DNA of 64,000 nucleotides, from contig NZ_CP136600.1 in assembly GCF_032911225.1 (NCBI RefSeq), forward strand, positions 2,418,001-2,482,000. Direction: 5' to 3'. Under the pieces are notes generated by a model that was not told where the DNA came from, searched no databases, and was given only the letters and a program-made list of their open reading frames with translations. Within the stretch, counting starts at the first letter, position 1. Every line of letters begins with the position of its first letter. This document shows, piece after piece, positions 4,719-63,835 of the stretch. The position numbers and the translations under genes were made by a program. Source of the DNA: Thalassotalea fonticola (GTDB taxonomy: Bacteria; Pseudomonadota; Gammaproteobacteria; Enterobacterales; Alteromonadaceae).

Positions 4719-6203
4719 CTAATCGTTATCAGTGTAAGTTTCATCATAACGTTTATAATCTTTGTGATTATAAAGGTGCTTTTCAATAACGGCAGGTTTT
4801 GCCAAATTCTTTAATACTTTTTTACCGGCTTTGGTTTTCCAGTGCGGATGCTCTTTCGTTATTGCCGGTAATTGCTGCATAAAGCCATCAAATTCAGCGC
4901 GAGCTTTGGCGTGCTCAGGGTTACCATCGGCAAGTACATAACCATGACCAAAACGGTTATCGGCAGTGTAATAAAAACGGCCGTTCGGCATATTCATTAC
5001 CGGGTTGACCACTTCTAACATATAGTTTTTGGTTCTAAATATTTGTGACGTAGCAGCATAGCCATATACCCAATCACGATGGACGTCGGTTTCACCTGCA
5101 TAAAAAGACTGTAAGCTGGTGCCATCAAATTTATGCCCTTCAGGAACAAAGTCCCATGCTTGTGCCAAGTCAATTAACGTTGGGGTAATATCTGATAAAT
5201 CAGTTAACTCATCGGTAGCACCACGTTTTTTAACTCCGGCGCCAGCGGCAATATGAACAACATGCGAGCCGCGCTCTACGCCACGAGTTTTCGCTGTAAC
5301 CGCGGTGCCATTATCTGAGGTGAAAATAATTACAGTGTTATCACTAATGCCTAATGATTCTACTTTCGCCACAACTTCTCCCACTTTTAAATCTAAGTAT
5401 TCAATTAACGATTTAAAACGTGCTGTGTCTTCACCTGTTGCATCACTCGATTTTTTACCAAGTATCCCAGGTGTACCTCGCAATGGATTGGTTGGCATGC
5501 CAGTACGAGTACCATGTGGTGCAACGGTTGGCCAATAAGCTAAAAATGGCTTCTTTGCTTTTACGCTTTTTTCCATAAACTCCATAATAAATTCAGCTTC
5601 AATATCTACGCCATAATCCGTTGGTTTGGTGTCCATCAATTTACCATTTTTAACAAAGCCAGGATGCCAATAACGTGAGGTTGTTTTATGATCTTCCATT
5701 AAACCGGTAAACGTTGGCGAACCAGTTAACTTAGAAATTTCTTTGGTGCTTTCCCATAATGCATATTCATCAAAGGCAAGTACGTCATCATGCGGCATTT
5801 GTACGCCAGCGTGCCATTTACCGGTAATTGCCGTTGCATACCCGGCATCTTTTAACACTCGGCTAAATGGGATATTGTCACTATAAACATTATGGCGAGA
5901 ATCTCCCATCCAAATTTCATTAACATACACACCGGTGGTGTCTGCATAACGACCAGTCATAATTTCTACTCGGCTAGAGGCACATTTCGCCGTGGCATAA
6001 GCGGTTTTAAACATTACGCCTTGGGCAGCGAGCTTGTCGATATTTGGGGTACTGGCTGAACCTTCCTGGCCAAACGCACTAAACATATCAGGGCTAACAT
6101 CATCCGCTAATATCAACACGATATTCGGTCGAGTTTCTGCCGCCTGGGCAAACATACTGGTGGTAAATACGGCTATTGCCATCAAACGTTTTAAATAATT
6201 CAT
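4719..6203 (-). CDS. Secreted S1-family sulfatase (CASSR motif)
   Basis: This type-I sulfatase, predicted periplasmic, hydrolyses sulfate esters from carbohydrate. Cys74 lies in CASSR, the C-x-S-x-R form of the site converted to formylglycine. Metal-binding ADD (about 33-35), GKWH, and SDNGT are all present. I chose ATG at 6203 (MNYLKRLM) over a GTG at 6221, because a TAGGA lies just upstream and a clean signal peptide (about 1-22, ending QAA) follows. It is most like the sulfatase at 18576: both share a SRYW.PG..NGK segment, KAKKPFLAY and a similar C-terminal half ending in KDY(K)..YDE. It is convergent with the GMC gene and shares its upstream region (6204-6576) with the divergent moxR operon. 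Confidence 0.92.
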   Translation of the reverse strand: MNYLKRLMAIAVFTTSMFAQAAETRPNIVLILADDVSPDMFSAFGQEGSASTPNIDKLAAQGVMFKTAYATAKCASSRVEIMTGRYADTTGVYVNEIWMGDSRHNVYSDNIPFSRVLKDAGYATAITGKWHAGVQMPHDDVLAFDEYALWESTKEISKLTGSPTFTGLMEDHKTTSRYWHPGFVKNGKLMDTKPTDYGVDIEAEFIMEFMEKSVKAKKPFLAYWPTVAPHGTRTGMPTNPLRGTPGILGKKSSDATGEDTARFKSLIEYLDLKVGEVVAKVESLGISDNTVIIFTSDNGTAVTAKTRGVERGSHVVHIAAGAGVKKRGATDELTDLSDITPTLIDLAQAWDFVPEGHKFDGTSLQSFYAGETDVHRDWVYGYAATSQIFRTKNYMLEVVNPVMNMPNGRFYYTADNRFGHGYVLADGNPEHAKARAEFDGFMQQLPAITKEHPHWKTKAGKKVLKNLAKPAVIEKHLYNHKDYKRYDETYTDND

Positions 6204-6400: not shown

Positions 6401-6423
6401 GTTTTACACAATTTTACACAACA
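6401..6423. promoter_or_regulatory. TTTTACACA direct repeat between sulfatase and moxR (operator candidate a)
   Basis: Two copies of TTTTACACA (6402-6410 and 6412-6420) lie 10 bp apart in the 373-base gap 6204-6576 between a minus-strand sulfatase and the plus-strand moxR operon. The same kind of repeat occurs upstream of five other hydrolase or transport units in this window. The rest of the gap is AT-rich with no gene or clear hairpin. Function as an activator or repressor site is inference. Confidence 0.5.
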
Positions 6424-6576
6424 GGCCCTTAACAAGTAACATTAGCAACTGTGAAACCAAGGTGTTTTTCCGTGCTTTACCCAACTTTACAGTATTGCCA
6501 CTTCCTAAATGAAATTATACCAATTAAAGTAGCAATACTATTATCAATAATAAACTCAATTACTAAGCACCAAATC

Positions 6577-7575
6577 ATGAGCTCCAGCATAAATTCATCA
6601 CAAACCTCTCAATTAAAGTTATCAGACAGCATTCATAATCTGCGCCAGGAAATTGCCAAGGTTATTGTTGGTCAAGAAGCGCTAGTTGAACGATTGATCA
6701 TCACCTTAATGTGTCAAAGCCACGTATTGATTGAGGGCATACCAGGGCTCGCGAAAACCTTAACAGTGAACACACTGGCGCAAGCTTTGGGGTTGAAGTT
6801 TAGCAGAGTACAATTTACCCCGGATTTATTGCCTGGCGATTTAACCGGAACGCAAATATATAATCCAAGTAGTGGTGAATTTGATACGCAAAAGGGGCCT
6901 ATTTTTGCCAATATTGTGCTCGCCGATGAAATCAACCGTTCGCCAGCAAAAGTACAATCAGCTTTATTGGAGGCGATGCAAGAAAAGCAAGTGACCTTAG
7001 GTAAAACCATTCACTCACTACCGCAACCTTTTTTAGTATTAGCGACACAAAATCCGATCGAACAGGAAGGTACTTACCCGTTACCAGAAGCTCAAGTTGA
7101 CCGCTTTATGTTTAAATTAAAAGTCGACTATCCAAGTTTTGATGATGAATTAGAAGTACTGCGCCGTATGTCTGCGCCGGGTCAGACTAAAACAAGCATT
7201 AATTGCGTCTTGAGTATTGAAGATTTAAATTTGCTATGCCAACAAGTTAGCACTGTTTACCTTGATCCGAACTTAGAAAAATACATATTGCATTTGATCA
7301 CAGCCACCCGCCACCCAGAGCAATATGATTTACCCTTATCAGACATGATACGTTTTGGTGCATCTCCACGTGCCACCATCAATCTGGCCATGGCAGCACG
7401 CGCCGAAGCAATATTGCAAGGGCGAGATCATGTACAACCTGCAGATATTCGCACCTTAGCTCCTGATATATTACGCCATCGTATTGCCTTAAGTTACAAG
7501 GCAGAAGCACAAAATATCAGCTCCGAGCAGTTGATTGAACAAATATTGGCGCAAGTGGCCATTCCTCATGATTAA
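6577..7575 (+). CDS. moxR: MoxR-family AAA+ ATPase
   Basis: This cytoplasmic AAA+ ATPase of the MoxR family acts, in studied cases, as a chaperone that activates or inserts cofactors into partner proteins together with VWA-domain proteins. The Walker A motif GIPGLAKT is at about residues 54-61, Walker B LADEINRS follows, and sensor ATQNP and the arginine-finger region are present. The frame is open back to 6451, but MSSSINSS at 6577 gives the normal family length (332 residues) and start; no strong ribosome site is visible. It is the first gene of a five-gene operon (moxR, DUF58, membrane protein, batA, batB, batD) with short gaps and overlaps. Confidence 0.93.
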   Translation: MSSSINSSQTSQLKLSDSIHNLRQEIAKVIVGQEALVERLIITLMCQSHVLIEGIPGLAKTLTVNTLAQALGLKFSRVQFTPDLLPGDLTGTQIYNPSSGEFDTQKGPIFANIVLADEINRSPAKVQSALLEAMQEKQVTLGKTIHSLPQPFLVLATQNPIEQEGTYPLPEAQVDRFMFKLKVDYPSFDDELEVLRRMSAPGQTKTSINCVLSIEDLNLLCQQVSTVYLDPNLEKYILHLITATRHPEQYDLPLSDMIRFGASPRATINLAMAARAEAILQGRDHVQPADIRTLAPDILRHRIALSYKAEAQNISSEQLIEQILAQVAIPHD

Positions 7576-23215: not shown

Positions 23216-24709
23216 CTATTCGGTACTAATTTTTTTTTTACTTTCTTTCTTACTTTTTTTGTCTTTCTTGTTCTTTTTAACGTTCACAGTTTTTGCTTTG
23301 TCCTCCGGCCATACATCTACGGGCTGATAACTACTGTTATTTGAGTAGTCACCACCTTGGTGGCTGACACGAAATGATTGTTGAAACTGTTTTAAAATTG
23401 ATGTCATTTGCTGAACAAGCTCAGGCTTGGTAGCGGCAAGGTCTGATTGCTCTTTTACATCATTAGTTAAATGGTAAAGCTCAGCTTGTTCAAAGGACTT
23501 ACTGTTTATAAGGAGTTTGTAACCGTCTTTGATCAGGCCTAACTTGCCTTTATGGTAAAAAGGTATTTCAGCTGACTCTGCCTTTTTATCGGTTAACTCG
23601 GCCAATAAGTTACGGCCATCAAGCGGCCTATCTTGTGGTGCAGTTTGTTTGGTGATAGCCAATATTGTTGGTAAATAATCTAAGGTAGAAGAAGCATTAT
23701 CCAAGCGTTGGCCTGACTTGATATGGTTAGGGTAAAGCATGACAGTAGGCACTCGCACACCGCCTTCATACAATGAGCGTTTACGACCGCGCAATTCACC
23801 TGAAATTCCTGCATGTCTTCCTTTTACAGTTTTTCCTTCTGGACCATTATCACTGGTAAAACTAATAAACGTGTTGTCAGTGACGTCAAGTTTAGCGAGA
23901 AGATCACGTAAACGACCGATTTGTTCATCCATTTCTGTTACCGCCCCATAATAATGAGCTGCATTGCCATGTTCTGGATATAGCGCTAAATAGTCAGGGC
24001 CAGCAATAACCGGCGCATGCGGGGCATGAAACCAAATAACGGTGAAAAATGGTTTGTTGTTTTTCACGCTGTTGTCAATAAAGTCAAGCGCGCGATCCAT
24101 AACCACGCGTGAAGCACCGCCCTTTAAACTTGGATCTTCAGGTGATAATGCGACACCATTATGCCAAAACGGATTATTTTCGGCTCGACTACCTATAGAT
24201 GGGTCCCAAGTTGCTACAGCTGATTCAGTAACAAAACTTTCGTCATAACCATGAAAAGCTGGTGGCGAGTAGTTTTCAACGATCTTACGTTTTTTACCTT
24301 TGGCAGAAAATTCTTTGCTTAATGTACCAAGATGCCATTTGCCAAAATGGCCAGTTGCATAACCAGCACTTTTTAATAATTCAGCTAAGGTAATTTCGTC
24401 TTTTGGTAGATGGCCGATATTGGCGCTAAAAATACCATACCGGTAAGGATGTCTACCAGTTAGTACACTACCCCTTGTTGGCGAACAAACAGGTGCTGCA
24501 GCGTGAAAATTTGTCATCACCGCCCCGTCAATTGCCATTTTGTCTAAGCTTGGAGTTTTAATAATACTATTGCCGTTAAATCCAGTATCACCATAACCTA
24601 AATCATCCGCCATCAATAAAATAACGTTTGGTTGTTTTTGCTCTTCGGCTAAACAAGCTGGCAGAGCAAAACAAGTGATTGCTGTTATAGTTAAAATTTT
24701 ACGTATCAT
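23216..24709 (-). CDS. Secreted S1-family sulfatase (CSPTR motif) with Lys-rich tail
   Basis: This arylsulfatase-A-like carbohydrate sulfatase has 497 residues from ATG 24709 (MIRKILT); an upstream ATG at 24736 would add nine residues before the signal peptide. The signal ends near CLA (residue 21). MADD (33-36), Cys75 in canonical CSPTR, FGKWHLG and SDNGP are present. The C-terminus is a run of Lys with Asp/Ser (KKNKKDKKSKKESKKK), encoded in part by an A10 tract (T10 at 23230-23239 on the plus strand). This tail is not part of the catalytic fold and recurs on two other sulfatases here. It is the first gene of the run leading to the receptor and has repeat site b upstream. Confidence 0.92.
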   Translation of the reverse strand: MIRKILTITAITCFALPACLAEEQKQPNVILLMADDLGYGDTGFNGNSIIKTPSLDKMAIDGAVMTNFHAAAPVCSPTRGSVLTGRHPYRYGIFSANIGHLPKDEITLAELLKSAGYATGHFGKWHLGTLSKEFSAKGKKRKIVENYSPPAFHGYDESFVTESAVATWDPSIGSRAENNPFWHNGVALSPEDPSLKGGASRVVMDRALDFIDNSVKNNKPFFTVIWFHAPHAPVIAGPDYLALYPEHGNAAHYYGAVTEMDEQIGRLRDLLAKLDVTDNTFISFTSDNGPEGKTVKGRHAGISGELRGRKRSLYEGGVRVPTVMLYPNHIKSGQRLDNASSTLDYLPTILAITKQTAPQDRPLDGRNLLAELTDKKAESAEIPFYHKGKLGLIKDGYKLLINSKSFEQAELYHLTNDVKEQSDLAATKPELVQQMTSILKQFQQSFRVSHQGGDYSNNSSYQPVDVWPEDKAKTVNVKKNKKDKKSKKESKKKISTE

Positions 24710-24837
24710 AGTTCTGGTAAATCCACATATGGCCATATTTGCAGTTGTCAGCTAATAAAACATGACCTAATCTAACGCTTAAGATATTAGAACCATAAGA
24801 GCATGATTTTATTTTATAATAAACACCCTCAACAAGT

Positions 24838-24859
24838 CTTTACAAAATCTTTACAATTG
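24838..24859. promoter_or_regulatory. CTTTACAA direct repeat upstream of sulfatase/receptor run (operator candidate b)
   Basis: CTTTACAA occurs at 24838-24845 and 24849-24856, 11 bp apart, 129 bases before the minus-strand start at 24709. A TATTAT/TATAAA-like stretch lies at 24813-24821 on the minus strand, about 17 bases further on, and could be the -10 region. The rest of the gap 24710-25156 holds no gene; GTGGCGC/GCGCCAC at 25111-25117 and 25135-25141 is an inverted repeat just past the end of the next gene, without a T run. Confidence 0.55.
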
Positions 24860-30171: not shown

Positions 30172-31770
30172 TTATGATTTTTTAATATGCTCGGCATCAG
30201 GTTCAGTAACGATTAAATCACCCGCTACTTCAATTTTAAATGCATGGGCAAATTCACCTTCTTTTTTCTCAGGATAAACTAAATGTAAACCTTTACTGTC
30301 TCTGTGCCATTTGATCTTTTCATCACTACCTATAAGGCTGATATTTTCTATTTTAGCTTCGCTCGATATTGCGTAGTCACTATTCAACGTTTTAATGGTC
30401 AGTTTGTTATCTTCAGGCCAACCTAACGCAATGGCGTATAAGGTGTTGTCTTTTTGCGTAAAGCGAACATCTTTTGCACCAAGCTTACGATGATCCCATT
30501 TAACTTTCTCTTTGCCTTTAATTTTAACGAATTTGGTTACTTTAGTTGGACCTTCACCGTAAACGCTATAACGACGAGTACCGTATATTGCTTCACCGTT
30601 AACTTTCATCCAACGACCAATGCCCTTCATAATTGCAATTTCTTCATCTGCAATTGAACCATCGCCTTTTGGTGTTAGCGATAAAAACATAATGCCACCA
30701 CGACTAGCGAAATCAATAATACTGTCTACTTGATAATCAGGACCGTCACGGTAAGTTTTATTATTTACATAACTCCAAGGGTAACCGATTGCTCTGTCAG
30801 CTAACCAGTAGCCTGGTTGATGTTCTGGCATATCTCGACCGTTTTCATAACTTTTTAAACCAACATGATCTGGAAAGTTAAAGTTCGCGGCTAACTTATT
30901 AGCAACAACTACATCTTGATCGCGCGCTGCAGATTCGTTGTAATAATACGATATTGCTTTTGTAACATTATCTTCGGTTGGGTGACCACCTTTCATCGAT
31001 GTAGACAAACCGTCAAACCAGATAAAGTCAGGTTTGTAGGTATCTACAACTTCGGTAATTTTCCCGTACCAATCTGAATTGAACTGCTCTTCTGAATCGC
31101 GTCCTTTTTTCCAGAAAAAATCACCTAATTCGGGATCAGAAATCTCCCAGTTTTTATTAATTTTAGATGCATCAGCACCCTTATCTGATAGCTCTCCATA
31201 AGCATAGTTAAAGGTTCTACCATGATGGAAAGTTGCTGCAAGCTTCATATCGGGGTATTTAGCAACTTCTGCTGCTATTTCGCCATAGATGTCTTTTTTC
31301 GGTCCCATATTTTTAGAATTCCAACGACTATATTTAGAATCCCATAATAAAAAACCATCGTGATGTACTAAAGCGATACCACCAAATTTAGCCCCTGCTT
31401 CATTCATTAACCCAACCCACTCACTGGCATTAAATTTTGGTGCGGTAAATTGAGGAATAAAATCGGTATAGCCAAACTCTTCTAAAGAGCCATACTTTTT
31501 AGTGTGGTATTCATATACACCTTTTCGATTTTTTGGCGAATACATTTGACGAACGTAATCTGGACCGCCATGAGCAGGAACTGAATAAATTCCCCAATGA
31601 GTGTAAACACCAAATTTGGCATCTATTAACCATTCTGGAATTTGCTTTGTGGCTATTGAATCCCAATCAGCTTCTATGTTTGCTGTTTTTTCAGCCAGCG
31701 CTGAAGTAGAGCTTAAACTCATTACAGCTATGGCTAAGGTGGTTAGTGGTAACTTTATTGCTTTAATCAT
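30172..31770 (-). CDS. GH29 alpha-L-fucosidase, divergent type
   Basis: This is a secreted GH29 enzyme predicted to release L-fucose by a retaining mechanism. I chose ATG 31770 (MIKAIKLPL), which gives a clean signal peptide (1-26, ending ALA) and 532 residues; the frame extends to 31818. Landmarks are FGVYTHWGIYSVP (about 53-65), ALVHHDGFLLWDS (about 133-145) and the nucleophile Asp253 in WFDG. In place of the usual YYS.W.W segment it has ATFHHGR, like its paralogue at 41870 and the partial gene at 1, so these three form a subgroup. It is the first gene after repeat site c and is followed by a terminator. Confidence 0.92.
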   Translation of the reverse strand: MIKAIKLPLTTLAIAVMSLSSTSALAEKTANIEADWDSIATKQIPEWLIDAKFGVYTHWGIYSVPAHGGPDYVRQMYSPKNRKGVYEYHTKKYGSLEEFGYTDFIPQFTAPKFNASEWVGLMNEAGAKFGGIALVHHDGFLLWDSKYSRWNSKNMGPKKDIYGEIAAEVAKYPDMKLAATFHHGRTFNYAYGELSDKGADASKINKNWEISDPELGDFFWKKGRDSEEQFNSDWYGKITEVVDTYKPDFIWFDGLSTSMKGGHPTEDNVTKAISYYYNESAARDQDVVVANKLAANFNFPDHVGLKSYENGRDMPEHQPGYWLADRAIGYPWSYVNNKTYRDGPDYQVDSIIDFASRGGIMFLSLTPKGDGSIADEEIAIMKGIGRWMKVNGEAIYGTRRYSVYGEGPTKVTKFVKIKGKEKVKWDHRKLGAKDVRFTQKDNTLYAIALGWPEDNKLTIKTLNSDYAISSEAKIENISLIGSDEKIKWHRDSKGLHLVYPEKKEGEFAHAFKIEVAGDLIVTEPDAEHIKKS

Positions 31771-31858
31771 TATTGTTTCACTATAGGTAATTGAAAATTG
31801 CATGTAATTTAAAACCATATTATGTTTTTAACCTATAAAACACACCAAAACAAGATTA

Positions 31859-31880
31859 TTTGCACAACCTTTACAATAAT
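31859..31880. promoter_or_regulatory. TTTGCACAA/TTTACAATA direct repeat upstream of GH29 (operator candidate c)
   Basis: TTTGCACAA at 31859-31867 and TTTACAATA at 31870-31878 lie 11 bp apart, 89 bases before the minus-strand GH29 start at 31770. The first copy has one mismatch to the TTTACA core found at the other sites. The rest of 31771-31932 shows no gene. Confidence 0.45.
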
Positions 31881-40049: not shown

Positions 40050-40098
40050 CTTTACACAATCTTTACAAAGAGGAAATTTACACAACCTTTACTCGGCT
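40050..40098. promoter_or_regulatory. Double CTTTACA direct-repeat array upstream of sulfatase (operator candidate d)
   Basis: Two pairs lie in series: CTTTACACAAT and CTTTACAAAG (40050-40060, 40061-40070), then TTTACACAACC and TTTACTCGG (40077-40087, 40088-40096), each pair with an 11 bp period. TATTAT at 40098-40103 is a possible -10 just after the second pair, 73 bases before the start at 40174. This is the clearest copy in the window. The rest of the 616-base gap 39558-40173 is AT-rich, with no supported gene; the repeat could also serve the divergent exoprotein gene. Confidence 0.6.
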
Positions 40099-40173
40099 AT
40101 TATTTACAAAAGACACCAAAAGTATAAATAATAAGCTTAGTTAATTTGTAAATATTTCAATTTGAGTTTTATT

Positions 40174-53587: not shown

Positions 53588-53811
53588 TGTTTTTACCTTT
53601 TGTTAGTGTCATCGGTATTAATAAGCATCGGTGATTGTTAAACGACGCAACACAATTGTGACTTTTATTTATTTTAATCACAACACTACAATGTACTCAT
53701 TATAATTGAAAGACACCACTACTCCAGATCTGGGGACATCCAAAACCGCACACTCACAAAAACAACGTAACCAATTGTTAATTAATGATTTATATGAAAA
53801 ACAACAGTTAT

Positions 53812-53827
53812 GTAAATTAACGTAAAT
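53812..53827. promoter_or_regulatory. GTAAAT direct repeat between fucP and PQQ-like gene (operator candidate f)
   Basis: GTAAAT occurs at 53812-53817 and 53822-53827, exactly 10 bp apart; read on the minus strand it is ATTTACG and ATTTACA, matching the TTTACA core of the other sites. It lies in the 373-base divergent gap 53588-53960 between fucP and the PQQ-like lipoprotein gene. Nothing else is clear in the gap apart from AT-rich promoter-like sequence and AGAGGAAA before 53961. Confidence 0.45.
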
Positions 53828-61793: not shown

Positions 61794-61846
61794 TTTACAA
61801 AGGTTAACAATCGTAAAGTTATGTAAAGAATCATCTTTACATAAAA
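61794..61846. promoter_or_regulatory. TTTACA/GTAAAG repeat cluster between beta-helix and sulfatase genes (operator candidate e)
   Basis: GTAAAG occurs at 61813-61818 and 61823-61828, 10 bp apart (CTTTAC on the minus strand). TTTACAA at 61794 and CTTTAC at 61835 flank it. It lies in the 312-base divergent gap 61694-62005. The same gap contains a run of nine C (61866-61874), unusual in this AT-rich DNA. No gene is visible in the gap. Confidence 0.5.
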
Positions 61847-62005: not shown

Positions 62006-63835
62006 TTGAAAATATCAGCACACTTTTATATCTTCATTGCGTTAACAGCATTGCTGTTGAATATAGAACAAGCTTATGCAACCCCTCTCGAGCAAGTTGT
62101 TACAAAACAACCCAACATAGTACTCGTGTTAACTGATGATCAAGGCTACGGTGATTTGTCGATTCATGGCAACCCGATAGTCAAGACTCCTGCAATAGAT
62201 GCACTTGCCATCGAGAGCGTTAGTTTAACCAATTATCATGTTGCACCAACATGTTCACCAACCCGAGCGGGTTTGTTAACCGGTAAGTGGAATAATAGAG
62301 TCGGTGTTTGGCACACTATTATGGGCCGATCTTTATTAAGCACCAGTGAAAAGACCTTAGCAAACCTGCTGCAAGAAAATGGTTATCAAACTGCTATGTT
62401 TGGCAAGTGGCATTTAGGTGATAATTTCCCATACCGTCCACAAGATAGAGGCTTTGACTTGGCGTATTATCACGGCGCAGGCGGTGTAGGACAAACTCCT
62501 GATCACTGGGATAATGCCTATTTTAATGATGTATTTTCAAGAAACGGGGTAAAAGAACAAGCTAAAGGCTTTGTTACTGATGCATTGTTTAAAGAAGCCA
62601 TCGAATATATTGATTCAGCCAAGCGCAGCGACAAACCATTCTTTACTTATATTAGTGCCAATGCACCTCATGGGCCAATGCACTCTCCGCAAGAGTATGC
62701 AGATATGTATGCCGATAAAAACATACCGGTTAAAGTACAGCACTTCTTTGGCATGATCAGTAATATTGATGATAATGTGGCAAAATTGCGTCGTTATTTA
62801 GATAAAGAAAACCTCGCCGACAATACCATCTTTATTTTTACCACAGATAATGGCACATCCACCGGTAGTACCGTATTTAATGCCAACATGCGTGGCCGTA
62901 AAAACAGTGAATATGATGGTGGCCACCGTGTACCGTTTTTCTTGCATTGGCCAAATGGTGATCTAGCACACAACAATAAGATAGACAGAATCACGTCCAT
63001 GGTAGACGTTGTACCAACACTGCTCAACTTAGTTAATTCAAAACCTTTAACCGTTGAGTTTGACGGTACTGTGCTTACGCCATTACTTAAGGAGCCTGAA
63101 TTACAAGAATGGCCTGCCCGCACCTTATTTACTGACTCACAACGAATACTTAATCCAATTAAGTGGCGTAAAAGTGCGGTAATGACAGACAAATGGCGTT
63201 TAATAAATGGTAAAGAGTTATATGACATTAAAGCAGATCCAAGCCAGTCAAATGACATATCAGCAAGCAATATTGAAACAGTTAACCTATTAAGAGCAGC
63301 TTATGATAATTGGTGGCAAGATATTAGCCTTAATTTTGACTCTCCTGCCGCAATTCCCGTAGGTAACCCTCTCGCCAATCCTGTGCAATTAACTAGCCAT
63401 GACTGGTTAGGTGATAATGCGCAAGTACCATGGCAACAAAGCCAAATAAGACAAGCTATTCGTGAAAAAGACGGTAAGCACAAAGGCTATTGGTATATAG
63501 ACATTGAAACTGCAGGTATGTATAGCTTTGAGCTTCGTCGCTGGCCTAAAGAAGTTGACCTAGAAATTGCTAAAGGTATGCCTGCAGCCCCAGCATCTAC
63601 CGGGCAAAAAGCCTTTCGAGAAACTAAAGGGCAAGCATTTCATGCTATTAAAGCCAGGATGAAGATAGGTGATAAATCTTATCAAACAGATGTTAACTCA
63701 ACAGATAAACATGCCCTATTCACCCTTAAACTGAACAAGGGAAAAAATAAACTGTTTGCTAGTTTTATTAATAAAGAAAGCGAAGAACTAGGTGCATATT
63801 ACTTAATAATTTCAAAATTAAAGGAACAGCTATGA
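62006..63835 (+). CDS. Secreted S1-family sulfatase (CSPTR motif) with C-terminal beta-domain
   Basis: This 609-residue arylsulfatase-A-like protein starts at TTG 62006. This is the only start-type codon that leaves a full signal peptide (1-25, ending AYA), as a stop lies in frame at 61982-61984. LTDDQG (42-47), Cys83 in CSPTR, FGKWHLG, APHGPMHSP and TTDNGT are present. It is about 110 residues longer than most others here because of a C-terminal domain (about 470-609; YWYIDIETAGMYSFELRRWP, KLNKGKNKLFASF) of beta-sandwich type, found in some arylsulfatases of marine bacteria. It is related to the sulfatase at 31933. The next gene overlaps its stop codon. Confidence 0.92.
   Translation: MKISAHFYIFIALTALLLNIEQAYATPLEQVVTKQPNIVLVLTDDQGYGDLSIHGNPIVKTPAIDALAIESVSLTNYHVAPTCSPTRAGLLTGKWNNRVGVWHTIMGRSLLSTSEKTLANLLQENGYQTAMFGKWHLGDNFPYRPQDRGFDLAYYHGAGGVGQTPDHWDNAYFNDVFSRNGVKEQAKGFVTDALFKEAIEYIDSAKRSDKPFFTYISANAPHGPMHSPQEYADMYADKNIPVKVQHFFGMISNIDDNVAKLRRYLDKENLADNTIFIFTTDNGTSTGSTVFNANMRGRKNSEYDGGHRVPFFLHWPNGDLAHNNKIDRITSMVDVVPTLLNLVNSKPLTVEFDGTVLTPLLKEPELQEWPARTLFTDSQRILNPIKWRKSAVMTDKWRLINGKELYDIKADPSQSNDISASNIETVNLLRAAYDNWWQDISLNFDSPAAIPVGNPLANPVQLTSHDWLGDNAQVPWQQSQIRQAIREKDGKHKGYWYIDIETAGMYSFELRRWPKEVDLEIAKGMPAAPASTGQKAFRETKGQAFHAIKARMKIGDKSYQTDVNSTDKHALFTLKLNKGKNKLFASFINKESEELGAYYLIISKLKEQL

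What the first reader, a model, noticed from the sequence alone, without database searches (positions are those of the whole stretch)
40050..40098. A shared 10-11 bp direct repeat (TTTACA core) marks the transcription units of the locus
Seen directly: CTTTACA-like half-sites in direct repeat, 10 or 11 bp apart, at 6402-6420, 24838-24856, 31859-31878, 40050-40096 (two pairs), 53812-53827 and 61813-61828. These precede the sulfatase at 6203 and/or moxR, the sulfatase/receptor run, a GH29, a sulfatase-GH29 pair, fucP and/or the PQQ-like gene, and the beta-helix and/or sulfatase pair. Known: one-turn direct repeats are the binding form of OmpR/PhoB-type regulators (Pho box: 7 bp + 4 bp, repeated). 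Inference: one regulator controls the whole locus, including the non-hydrolase genes. No regulator gene is in the window. Some gaps are AT-rich, so chance matches are possible, and the spacing varies between 10 and 11.
Basis: partly seen in the sequence, partly recalled or inferred. Interest (0 to 1): 0.72.

Follow-up and report, generated by a model that had tools for sequence, protein, structure and literature searches.

The report
CpxR-type boxes in fucan-degradation island
The repeated TTTACA pairs look like binding sites of the envelope-stress regulator CpxR, placed in front of many genes of a large seaweed-sugar degradation island, and a CpxR-type regulator gene sits just outside the stretch that was first read.

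Summary
The repeat is real and not chance. In this 4.90 Mb genome exact TTTACA pairs at 10 or 11 bp occur 24 times; 14 lie in one 240 kb sulfatase/fucosidase island holding the window, all intergenic. Read backwards the motif is GTAAA-N5/6-GTAAA, the published CpxR box. Such a pair stands upstream of 48 of 60 cpxR-family genes, 59 of them from other genomes. A matrix trained only on foreign boxes finds 17 intergenic sites in the island, 0 in sampled other sulfatase loci. Left of the window (6.5 kb) lies a CpxR/CpxA-like pair (RR1/HK1), probably acquired from a Kangiellaceae-like source and carrying its own box, plus a CpxR duplicate (RR3) that lost its phosphorylation residues. In a same-genus genome without RR1 the homologous locus keeps boxes before 7 of 9 orthologous genes (5 boxes), so the wiring does not need RR1 and was probably read first by the housekeeping CpxR. 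Binding, sign and signal are untested; which CpxR acts is open. Site 53812 is weak here but strong in the relative.

The parts
6403..6418 (+). CpxR-type box, 10 bp period, between a sulfatase (minus) and the moxR operon (plus)
   Evidence: exact pair; matrix score 18.1; box at the orthologous divergent gap in G902
6476..6491 (+). second CpxR-type box before moxR (inside the called ORF; probable true start near 6577)
   Evidence: one mismatch; matrix score 20.2; translation
24839..24855 (+). CpxR-type box, 11 bp, 103 bp before the sulfatase at 23216-24736 (minus), head of a sulfatase/TonB-receptor run
   Evidence: exact pair; score 21.8
31859..31875 (+). CpxR-type box, 11 bp, 41 bp before the GH29 at 30172-31818 (minus)
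   Evidence: one mismatch; score 19.2; box in G902 before the 94% identical orthologue
40051..40067 (+). strongest CpxR-type box of the window, 11 bp, before the sulfatase-GH29 pair at 40162 (plus)
   Evidence: score 26.3, near the median (25.9) of the foreign cpxR boxes; weaker exact pair, score 12.7, before the G902 orthologue
40077..40093 (+). second CpxR-type box of the tandem, 11 bp
   Evidence: score 25.5
53811..53826 (-). weak candidate box between the MFS transporter (minus) and the PQQ-like gene (plus)
   Evidence: below 10.5 here; strong box TTTACACTCCTTTACA, score 25.0, at the same divergent gap in G902
61812..61827 (-). CpxR-type box, 10 bp, between the CBM96 protein (minus) and the sulfatase at 62006 (plus). 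The regulators themselves (RR1, HK1, RR3) lie left of the window, at G000:C1:2410845-2411540, 2409441-2410814 and 2417087-2417830, all on the minus strand
   Evidence: one mismatch, score 20.6; no box at the G902 orthologue; regulators

Best explanation
The direct repeats are CpxR boxes (GTAAA-N5/6-GTAAA read on the other strand). A CpxR-family response regulator binds them as a head-to-tail dimer, one half-site per helical turn, and sets the transcription of many units of a large island for a fucose-containing sulfated polysaccharide. The ancestral reader was probably the housekeeping CpxR. In this genome a second, probably horizontally acquired CpxR/CpxA-like pair (RR1/HK1), lying in the island and carrying its own box, most likely shares or has taken over that role. 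A duplicate with a dead receiver (RR3) may bind the same boxes without phosphorylation. Shown by computation: box identity, clustering, conservation, kinship of RR1 and RR3. Inferred: binding, dimer form, sign (activation), signal, and which CpxR acts.
For: [quoted passage not shown] 48 of 60 cpxR-family genes have the TTTAC pair within 400 bp upstream, always on the strand opposite to the gene; shuffles give 0.3 of 60. 11 of 11 further housekeeping cpxR loci given to the script have a box. The E. coli cpxR-cpxP gap has TTTACGTTGTTTTACA. Matrix trained on 42 foreign boxes, threshold 13: island 17 sites in 24.2 kb intergenic, other sulfatase loci 0 in 27.0 kb, flanks 0 in 14.6 kb, neutral 1 in 41.9 kb. 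RR1, RR3, housekeeping CpxR and E. coli CpxR form one clade (99/94). RR1 has its own box 50 bp upstream. G902: 7 of 9 boxed genes keep a box, against 4 of 35 unboxed ones that have one (Fisher p 2.5e-4); reversed matrix 0 of 44. HK1's best NCBIfam model is CpxA.
Against: No binding or expression data. G902, G934, G948, G961 and G1114 have only 38-48% matches to RR1 yet have boxes, so RR1 is not needed for the wiring. In G101 the RR1/HK1 orthologues lie outside any such locus: in 120 kb only the pair itself, other two-component proteins and a pump resemble proteins of the island region. RR1 and HK1 score below NCBIfam's CpxR/CpxA cut-offs (239.9 of 341; 268.5 of 486), though the own housekeeping CpxR fails too (227.8). 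No cpxP-like gene lies at RR1. A non-CpxR regulator at 3.098 Mb sits beside exact 10 bp pairs, and its 59% relative in G101 among six 11 bp pairs, so TTTACA half-sites are not exclusive to CpxR. Island boxes score mostly 15-22, training median 25.9. At lower thresholds the neutral stretches also gain hits (7 in 41.9 kb at 11, 8 at 9).
Confidence: 0.78

Rival explanations
1. The boxes are read by the housekeeping CpxR alone; RR1/HK1 and RR3 are passengers or serve another purpose.
For: Boxes stand at orthologous promoters in same-genus genomes that have only CpxR-like proteins of 38-48% identity to RR1. The own housekeeping cpxR has an 11 bp pair, TTTACCCAATATTTAC. In G101 the RR1-type pair lies outside any such locus.
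Against: In this genome a second CpxR pair with its own exact box sits inside the box cluster. RR1 keeps the receiver residues and sits on a short branch.
Confidence: 0.3
2. Another OmpR/PhoB-family regulator with a TTTACA half-site, not of the CpxR clade (for example RR2 at 2414952 or the 3.098 Mb regulator), reads the island sites.
For: The 3.098 Mb regulator has two identical TTTACAAAAGTTTACA sites nearby, and its 59% relative in G101 lies among six exact 11 bp pairs. RR2/HK2 lies in the island.
Against: The 3.098 Mb sites carry G before the second half; 12 of 14 exact island sites carry C, as most cpxR boxes do. RR2 has no box within 261 bp upstream and shares a different palindrome with RR3. 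The 160 kb of G902 hold no match (E 1e-20) to any OmpR-type regulator of this genome.
Confidence: 0.12
3. Chance matches in AT-rich intergenic DNA.
For: Single TTTACA is common; gaps are AT-rich. Exact pairs also occur in relatives at background level, for example 5 in G139 against 6 for the reversed pattern.
Against: Single TTTACA is below expectation in the window; the 10/11 period is at chance elsewhere (4 of 81) and far over chance in the island (14 of 20); 0 sites in the sampled intergenic DNA of other sulfatase loci; conservation in G902.
Confidence: 0.02
4. The hexamers are promoter -35 elements rather than operator half-sites.
For: TTTACA resembles TTGACA.
Against: The pair is most often on the strand opposite to the gene (12 of 16 sites with one possible target, my count; divergent gaps, 40051 included, set aside). 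The doubled 10/11 spacing is unexplained by promoters. Separate -10-like hexamers 25-30 bp beyond the box are seen at 4 of 12 sites, against a mean of 0.9 and a maximum of 3 at other offsets (weak).
Confidence: 0.03

Closest known systems
CpxR box / Cpx regulon of E. coli and Pseudomonas aeruginosa
   Same: Direct repeat GTAAA-N5-6-GTAAA (passages of PMC9600279, passages of PMC12802237); box upstream of cpxR; CpxR-CpxA gene pair.
   Different: Here the dense target set is a sulfatase/fucosidase/TonB-receptor island, with an extra, probably acquired CpxRA-like pair and a receiver-dead CpxR; known Cpx targets are mainly envelope-maintenance genes (recalled).
SO2426 of Shewanella oneidensis (CpxR homologue controlling siderophore genes)
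   Same: A CpxR-related regulator moved to a nutrient-acquisition regulon with a tandem pentamer site (passages of PMC3127752).
   Different: SO2426 has a CAAAA-type motif and an iron regulon; here the classical GTAAA box is kept and the targets are polysaccharide genes.
Pho box (PhoB)
   Same: One-turn direct repeats bound by an OmpR/PhoB-family protein.
   Different: Half-site letters differ (Pho box about CTGTCAT, recalled); RR1 is in the CpxR clade.
LacI-type control of carbohydrate loci
   Same: The left sub-cluster (2.30-2.35 Mb) has two LacI genes and CG-centred palindromes beside boxes.
   Different: None of these palindromes occurs in the window.

Membership tests
CpxR binding site | GTAAA-N5-6-GTAAA direct repeat | tested here: met
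CpxR binding site | same motif upstream of cpxR genes of the lineage | tested here: met
   48 of 60; 11 of 11 loci given
CpxR binding site | bound by CpxR protein | not testable with these tools
   needs a shift assay or ChIP
CpxR (RR1) | groups with E. coli CpxR in a tree of the genome's OmpR-type regulators | tested here: met
   99/94, 50% identity to E. coli CpxR
CpxR (RR1) | NCBIfam CpxR equivalog cut-off (341 bits) | tested here: not met
   239.9 bits, best of all models; the own housekeeping CpxR scores 227.8, so the cut-off does not separate the two
CpxR (RR1) | adjacent CpxA-like kinase | tested here: inconclusive
   HK1 adjacent, best NCBIfam model CpxA at 268.5 of 486 bits; 35% over 334 aa to E. 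coli CpxA
CpxR (RR1) | divergent cpxP | tested here: not met
   upstream neighbour of RR1 is a TonB receptor on the same strand
CpxR (RR3) | phosphorylatable receiver (Asp, Thr, Lys) | tested here: not met
   aligned Asp51 to Asn, Thr78 to Ile, Lys100 to Met; receiver not found by Pfam at 1e-5
Pho box / PhoB | CTGTCAT-type half-site (recalled) and PhoB-clade regulator | tested here: not met
   half-site TTTACA; RR1 best model CpxR 239.9 against PhoB 187.6

The most novel reading that the evidence does not exclude
An envelope-stress signalling module has been rewired across a genus into the master switch of a sulfated-fucan utilisation island: CpxR boxes sit at many promoters of the island, the housekeeping CpxR read them first, and in this species the island gained its own foreign CpxRA pair plus a phosphorylation-blind CpxR duplicate that competes for, or constitutively occupies, the same boxes. 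The cell would then sense its food polymer through envelope load rather than through a sugar ligand.
Probability: 0.33. Interest if true: 0.8.

Novelty: new variant of a known kind. Interest (0 to 1): 0.63.

Why it matters
How marine Gammaproteobacteria switch on very large sulfated-polysaccharide loci is, to my knowledge, poorly known. This names the operator, candidate regulators with a kinase, and a matched negative control (other sulfatase loci of the same genome without boxes), so the question can be tested directly. It also suggests a box that stays in place across a genus while a second, foreign regulator of matching clade joins the island. No report of such a link was seen in these listings of one open library: CpxR with polysaccharide utilization and Alteromonas, 0 papers; CpxR with polysaccharide utilization, 3, off topic by title and abstract start; CpxR with TonB-dependent, polysaccharide and sulfatase, 0; Cpx with alginate lyase and marine terms, 10 of 54 seen; fucoidan with two-component terms, 12.

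Tried and rejected
Chance and the -35 reading: rejected. Pho box: rejected on half-site and clade. AraC-family reader: 23 matches genome-wide, none between 2.28 and 2.60 Mb. The 3.098 Mb regulator was first thought to be a CpxR paralogue because exact sites lie beside it; the tree put it outside the CpxR clade. The idea that RR1 alone explains the boxes was dropped when genomes without RR1 had them. The genome-contig scan with the RR1 alignment returned CpxR-like and other regulators of 36-51% identity, none a close orthologue. Whether the RR1-clade proteins from metagenomes lie in similar islands could not be seen. -10 spacing gave only a weak signal. Relatives of RR3: 6 proteins at E 1e-30 including itself; the other 5 carry the receiver domain in the precomputed Pfam column.

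Caveats on my own counts: the 60 cpxR loci are the best hits of three searches and are related, not independent; 12 of 60 have no exact TTTAC pair. In one search I gave 11 of the 20 loci (the best per genome, leaving out G884 at 38% and the second matches). The 7 conserved genes rest on 5 G902 boxes, since divergent genes share one, so its p value is optimistic. Half-site identity in the eight promoter sets is partly by construction, because sets were chosen for having boxes; the less biased test is the G902 160 kb, chosen by a sulfatase orthologue. The island-to-control ratio rests on one control hit. ORFs were called mechanically, so some sites counted as genic may be promoters.

Full report
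OBSERVATION. The hexamer alone is not over-represented in the window (51 against 77.8 expected). What is unusual is the pairing. Genome-wide the exact 10 bp pair occurs 12 times and the 11 bp pair 12 times (8 with C before the second half and 4 others). Of these 24, 14 lie between 2.304 and 2.540 Mb, the island that contains the window (2.418-2.482 Mb), and all 14 are intergenic. The binomial probability of 14 or more of 24 in 240 kb is 5.6e-13, with the limits drawn after the fact. With gaps of 0-25 the pair occurs 107 times, 100 of them listed. Within the island 14 of 20 have the 10/11 period; outside it, leaving out 2 sites at 3.09 Mb and 4 at 3.586-3.638 Mb, 4 of 81 do, where 6.2 are expected.

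IDENTITY OF THE BOX. On the other strand the motif reads TGTAAA-N4/5-TGTAAA. As an independent test I took 60 cpxR-family genes (RR1 itself, its G101 orthologue, 28 more family genomes, one class genome and 29 genomes of family f188) and read 400 bp upstream. 48 of 60 hold an exact TTTAC-N5/6-TTTAC pair, 26 of 60 an exact TTTACA pair, always on the strand opposite to the gene; shuffling gives 0.3 of 60. 11 of 11 further housekeeping cpxR loci given also have a box. The E. coli K-12 cpxR-cpxP gap holds TTTACGTTGTTTTACA.

TRANSFER TEST. A matrix built from 42 distinct foreign boxes (45 of 59 loci gave one), none from this genome, was run on fetched stretches. At threshold 13 the intergenic hits are 17 in 24.2 kb for the island, 4 in 9.3 kb for a second sulfatase region at 3.578-3.657 Mb, 0 in 27.0 kb for other sulfatase loci of the same genome (11 stretches), 0 in 14.6 kb for the island's flanks, 0 in 2.7 kb for 3.560-3.578 Mb and 1 in 41.9 kb for 19 neutral stretches. 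At threshold 11 the figures are 18, 4, 0, 1, 0 and 7; at 9 they are 22, 5, 0, 1, 0 and 8. Island against other sulfatase loci, flanks and neutral stretches at 13 is a 59-fold rate ratio. One search lists 81 sulfatase matches; the sulfatase clusters at 0.61-0.72, 1.38-1.42, 2.87-2.89 and 3.14-3.22 Mb have no exact 10/11 pair. The window's best sites are 40051 (26.3) and 40077 (25.5), close to the training median of 25.9; most other island sites score 15-22, and 53811 falls below 10.5.

TARGETS. Genes next to boxes include sulfatases, GH29 fucosidases, a TonB receptor, the moxR operon and CBM-bearing proteins. Most boxes stand 40-240 bp before a start codon. GH29, many sulfatases and an MFS transporter point to a fucose-containing sulfated polysaccharide; the substrate is inferred, not shown.

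THE REGULATORS. Trans_reg_C finds 30 matches genome-wide, three of them just left of the window. RR1 (G000:C1:2410845-2411540, minus) stands next to HK1 (2409441-2410814, minus). In a tree of 19 of the genome's regulators with E. coli CpxR, RR1, RR3 (2417087-2417830, minus), the housekeeping CpxR (3690839) and E. coli CpxR form one clade, 99/94. RR1 is 50% identical to E. coli CpxR; its best NCBIfam model is CpxR and HK1's is CpxA, both below the curated cut-offs, as is the housekeeping CpxR. RR1 has an exact 10 bp box 50 bp upstream; its 67% G101 orthologue has an exact 11 bp box in a similar position, though an overlapping ORF was called there. In G101 the pair is not in such an island, and among 147 family genomes only own and G101 have RR1-type proteins above 60%. 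In a wider tree RR1 nests with Aliikangiella-type CpxR proteins (100/98) and not with its own housekeeping CpxR, so it was probably acquired horizontally (family names rest on protein names). RR3 falls with RR1 but has lost the aligned phospho-Asp, Thr and Lys while keeping much of the recognition helix (14 of 18 residues identical to RR1); identity to RR1 is 57 of 99 in the DNA-binding domain against 50 of 112 in the receiver. Pfam at 1e-5 sees only its DNA-binding domain. Its long branch also fits a decaying gene. RR2 is OmpR-like with an EnvZ-like kinase and has no box.

CONSERVATION. The sulfatase at 40162 has matches at E 1e-100 in 5 of 395 family genomes, own included. G902 (same genus) carries the homologous locus at 1.517-1.605 Mb, with no match to an OmpR-type regulator of this genome in 160 kb; its best RR1 match is a 46% CpxR. 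Among 44 reciprocal orthologue pairs of at least 50% identity, 7 have boxes in both genomes, 2 only here, 4 only in G902 and 31 in neither (Fisher p 2.5e-4; the 7 genes share 5 G902 boxes); the reversed matrix gives none. The weak 53811 site corresponds to a strong G902 box in the same divergent gap. G934 and G948, also without RR1, have boxes at orthologous promoters of the left part of the island (stretches fetched because they held pairs). In eight promoter sets half-sites agree at 281 of 288 compared positions, spacers at 68 of 104 and ungapped flanks at 953 of 1920 (sets chosen for having boxes). Exact pairs are not confined to such loci: the 15 relatives searched have 1 to 21 each, and the reversed pattern gives 1 to 7; in G902 5 of 13 lie in this locus.

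MECHANISM. Most likely a CpxR-type protein binds the direct repeat and activates. Support for activation is weak: -10-like hexamers 25-30 bp beyond the box at 4 of 12 sites (mean 0.9, maximum 3 at other offsets), as in several cpxR promoters. In the left sub-cluster CG-centred palindromes lie near boxes (6 in 320 kb, none in the window), and two LacI genes lie there, which suggests an activator box plus a sugar-sensing repressor.

VERDICT. New variant of a known kind. Nothing on binding or expression has been tested.

Noticed in passing
L009:14839-14882 and L009:17824-17866 (G000:C1:2414839-2414882, 2417824-2417866; just left of the window): The same long inverted repeat (arms GTATCAAGTTGTCGCAA) stands upstream of RR2 and of RR3; no exact arm in the other 223 loci held. 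Possibly one operator shared by both regulators.
   Followed up: partly
G000:C1:2304663, 2308890, 2320033, 2321964, 2325859, 2347527: LacI-type palindromes TGAYAnCGnTRTCA; similar palindromes lie beside the boxes of the orthologous promoters in G934, G902 and G948; none in the window.
   Followed up: partly
G000:C1:3093670, 3097321 with regulator 3097422-3098117; G101:C64:164537-183770: A non-CpxR OmpR-type regulator with TTTACAAAAGTTTACA sites; its 59% relative in G101 lies among six exact 11 bp pairs. Probably a separate regulon with a similar half-site.
   Followed up: partly
G000:C1:3586493-3627503: A second sulfatase region over 1 Mb away carries 4 intergenic CpxR-type boxes, so the boxes are not confined to the island.
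   Followed up: partly
G000 whole genome: 81 sulfatase (PF00884) matches in 4.9 Mb (some genes split in two rows), in about six clusters.
   Followed up: no
window 6451-6577: The called moxR start (GTG 6451) is probably too early; ATG near 6577 fits the shorter G902 orthologue.
   Followed up: partly
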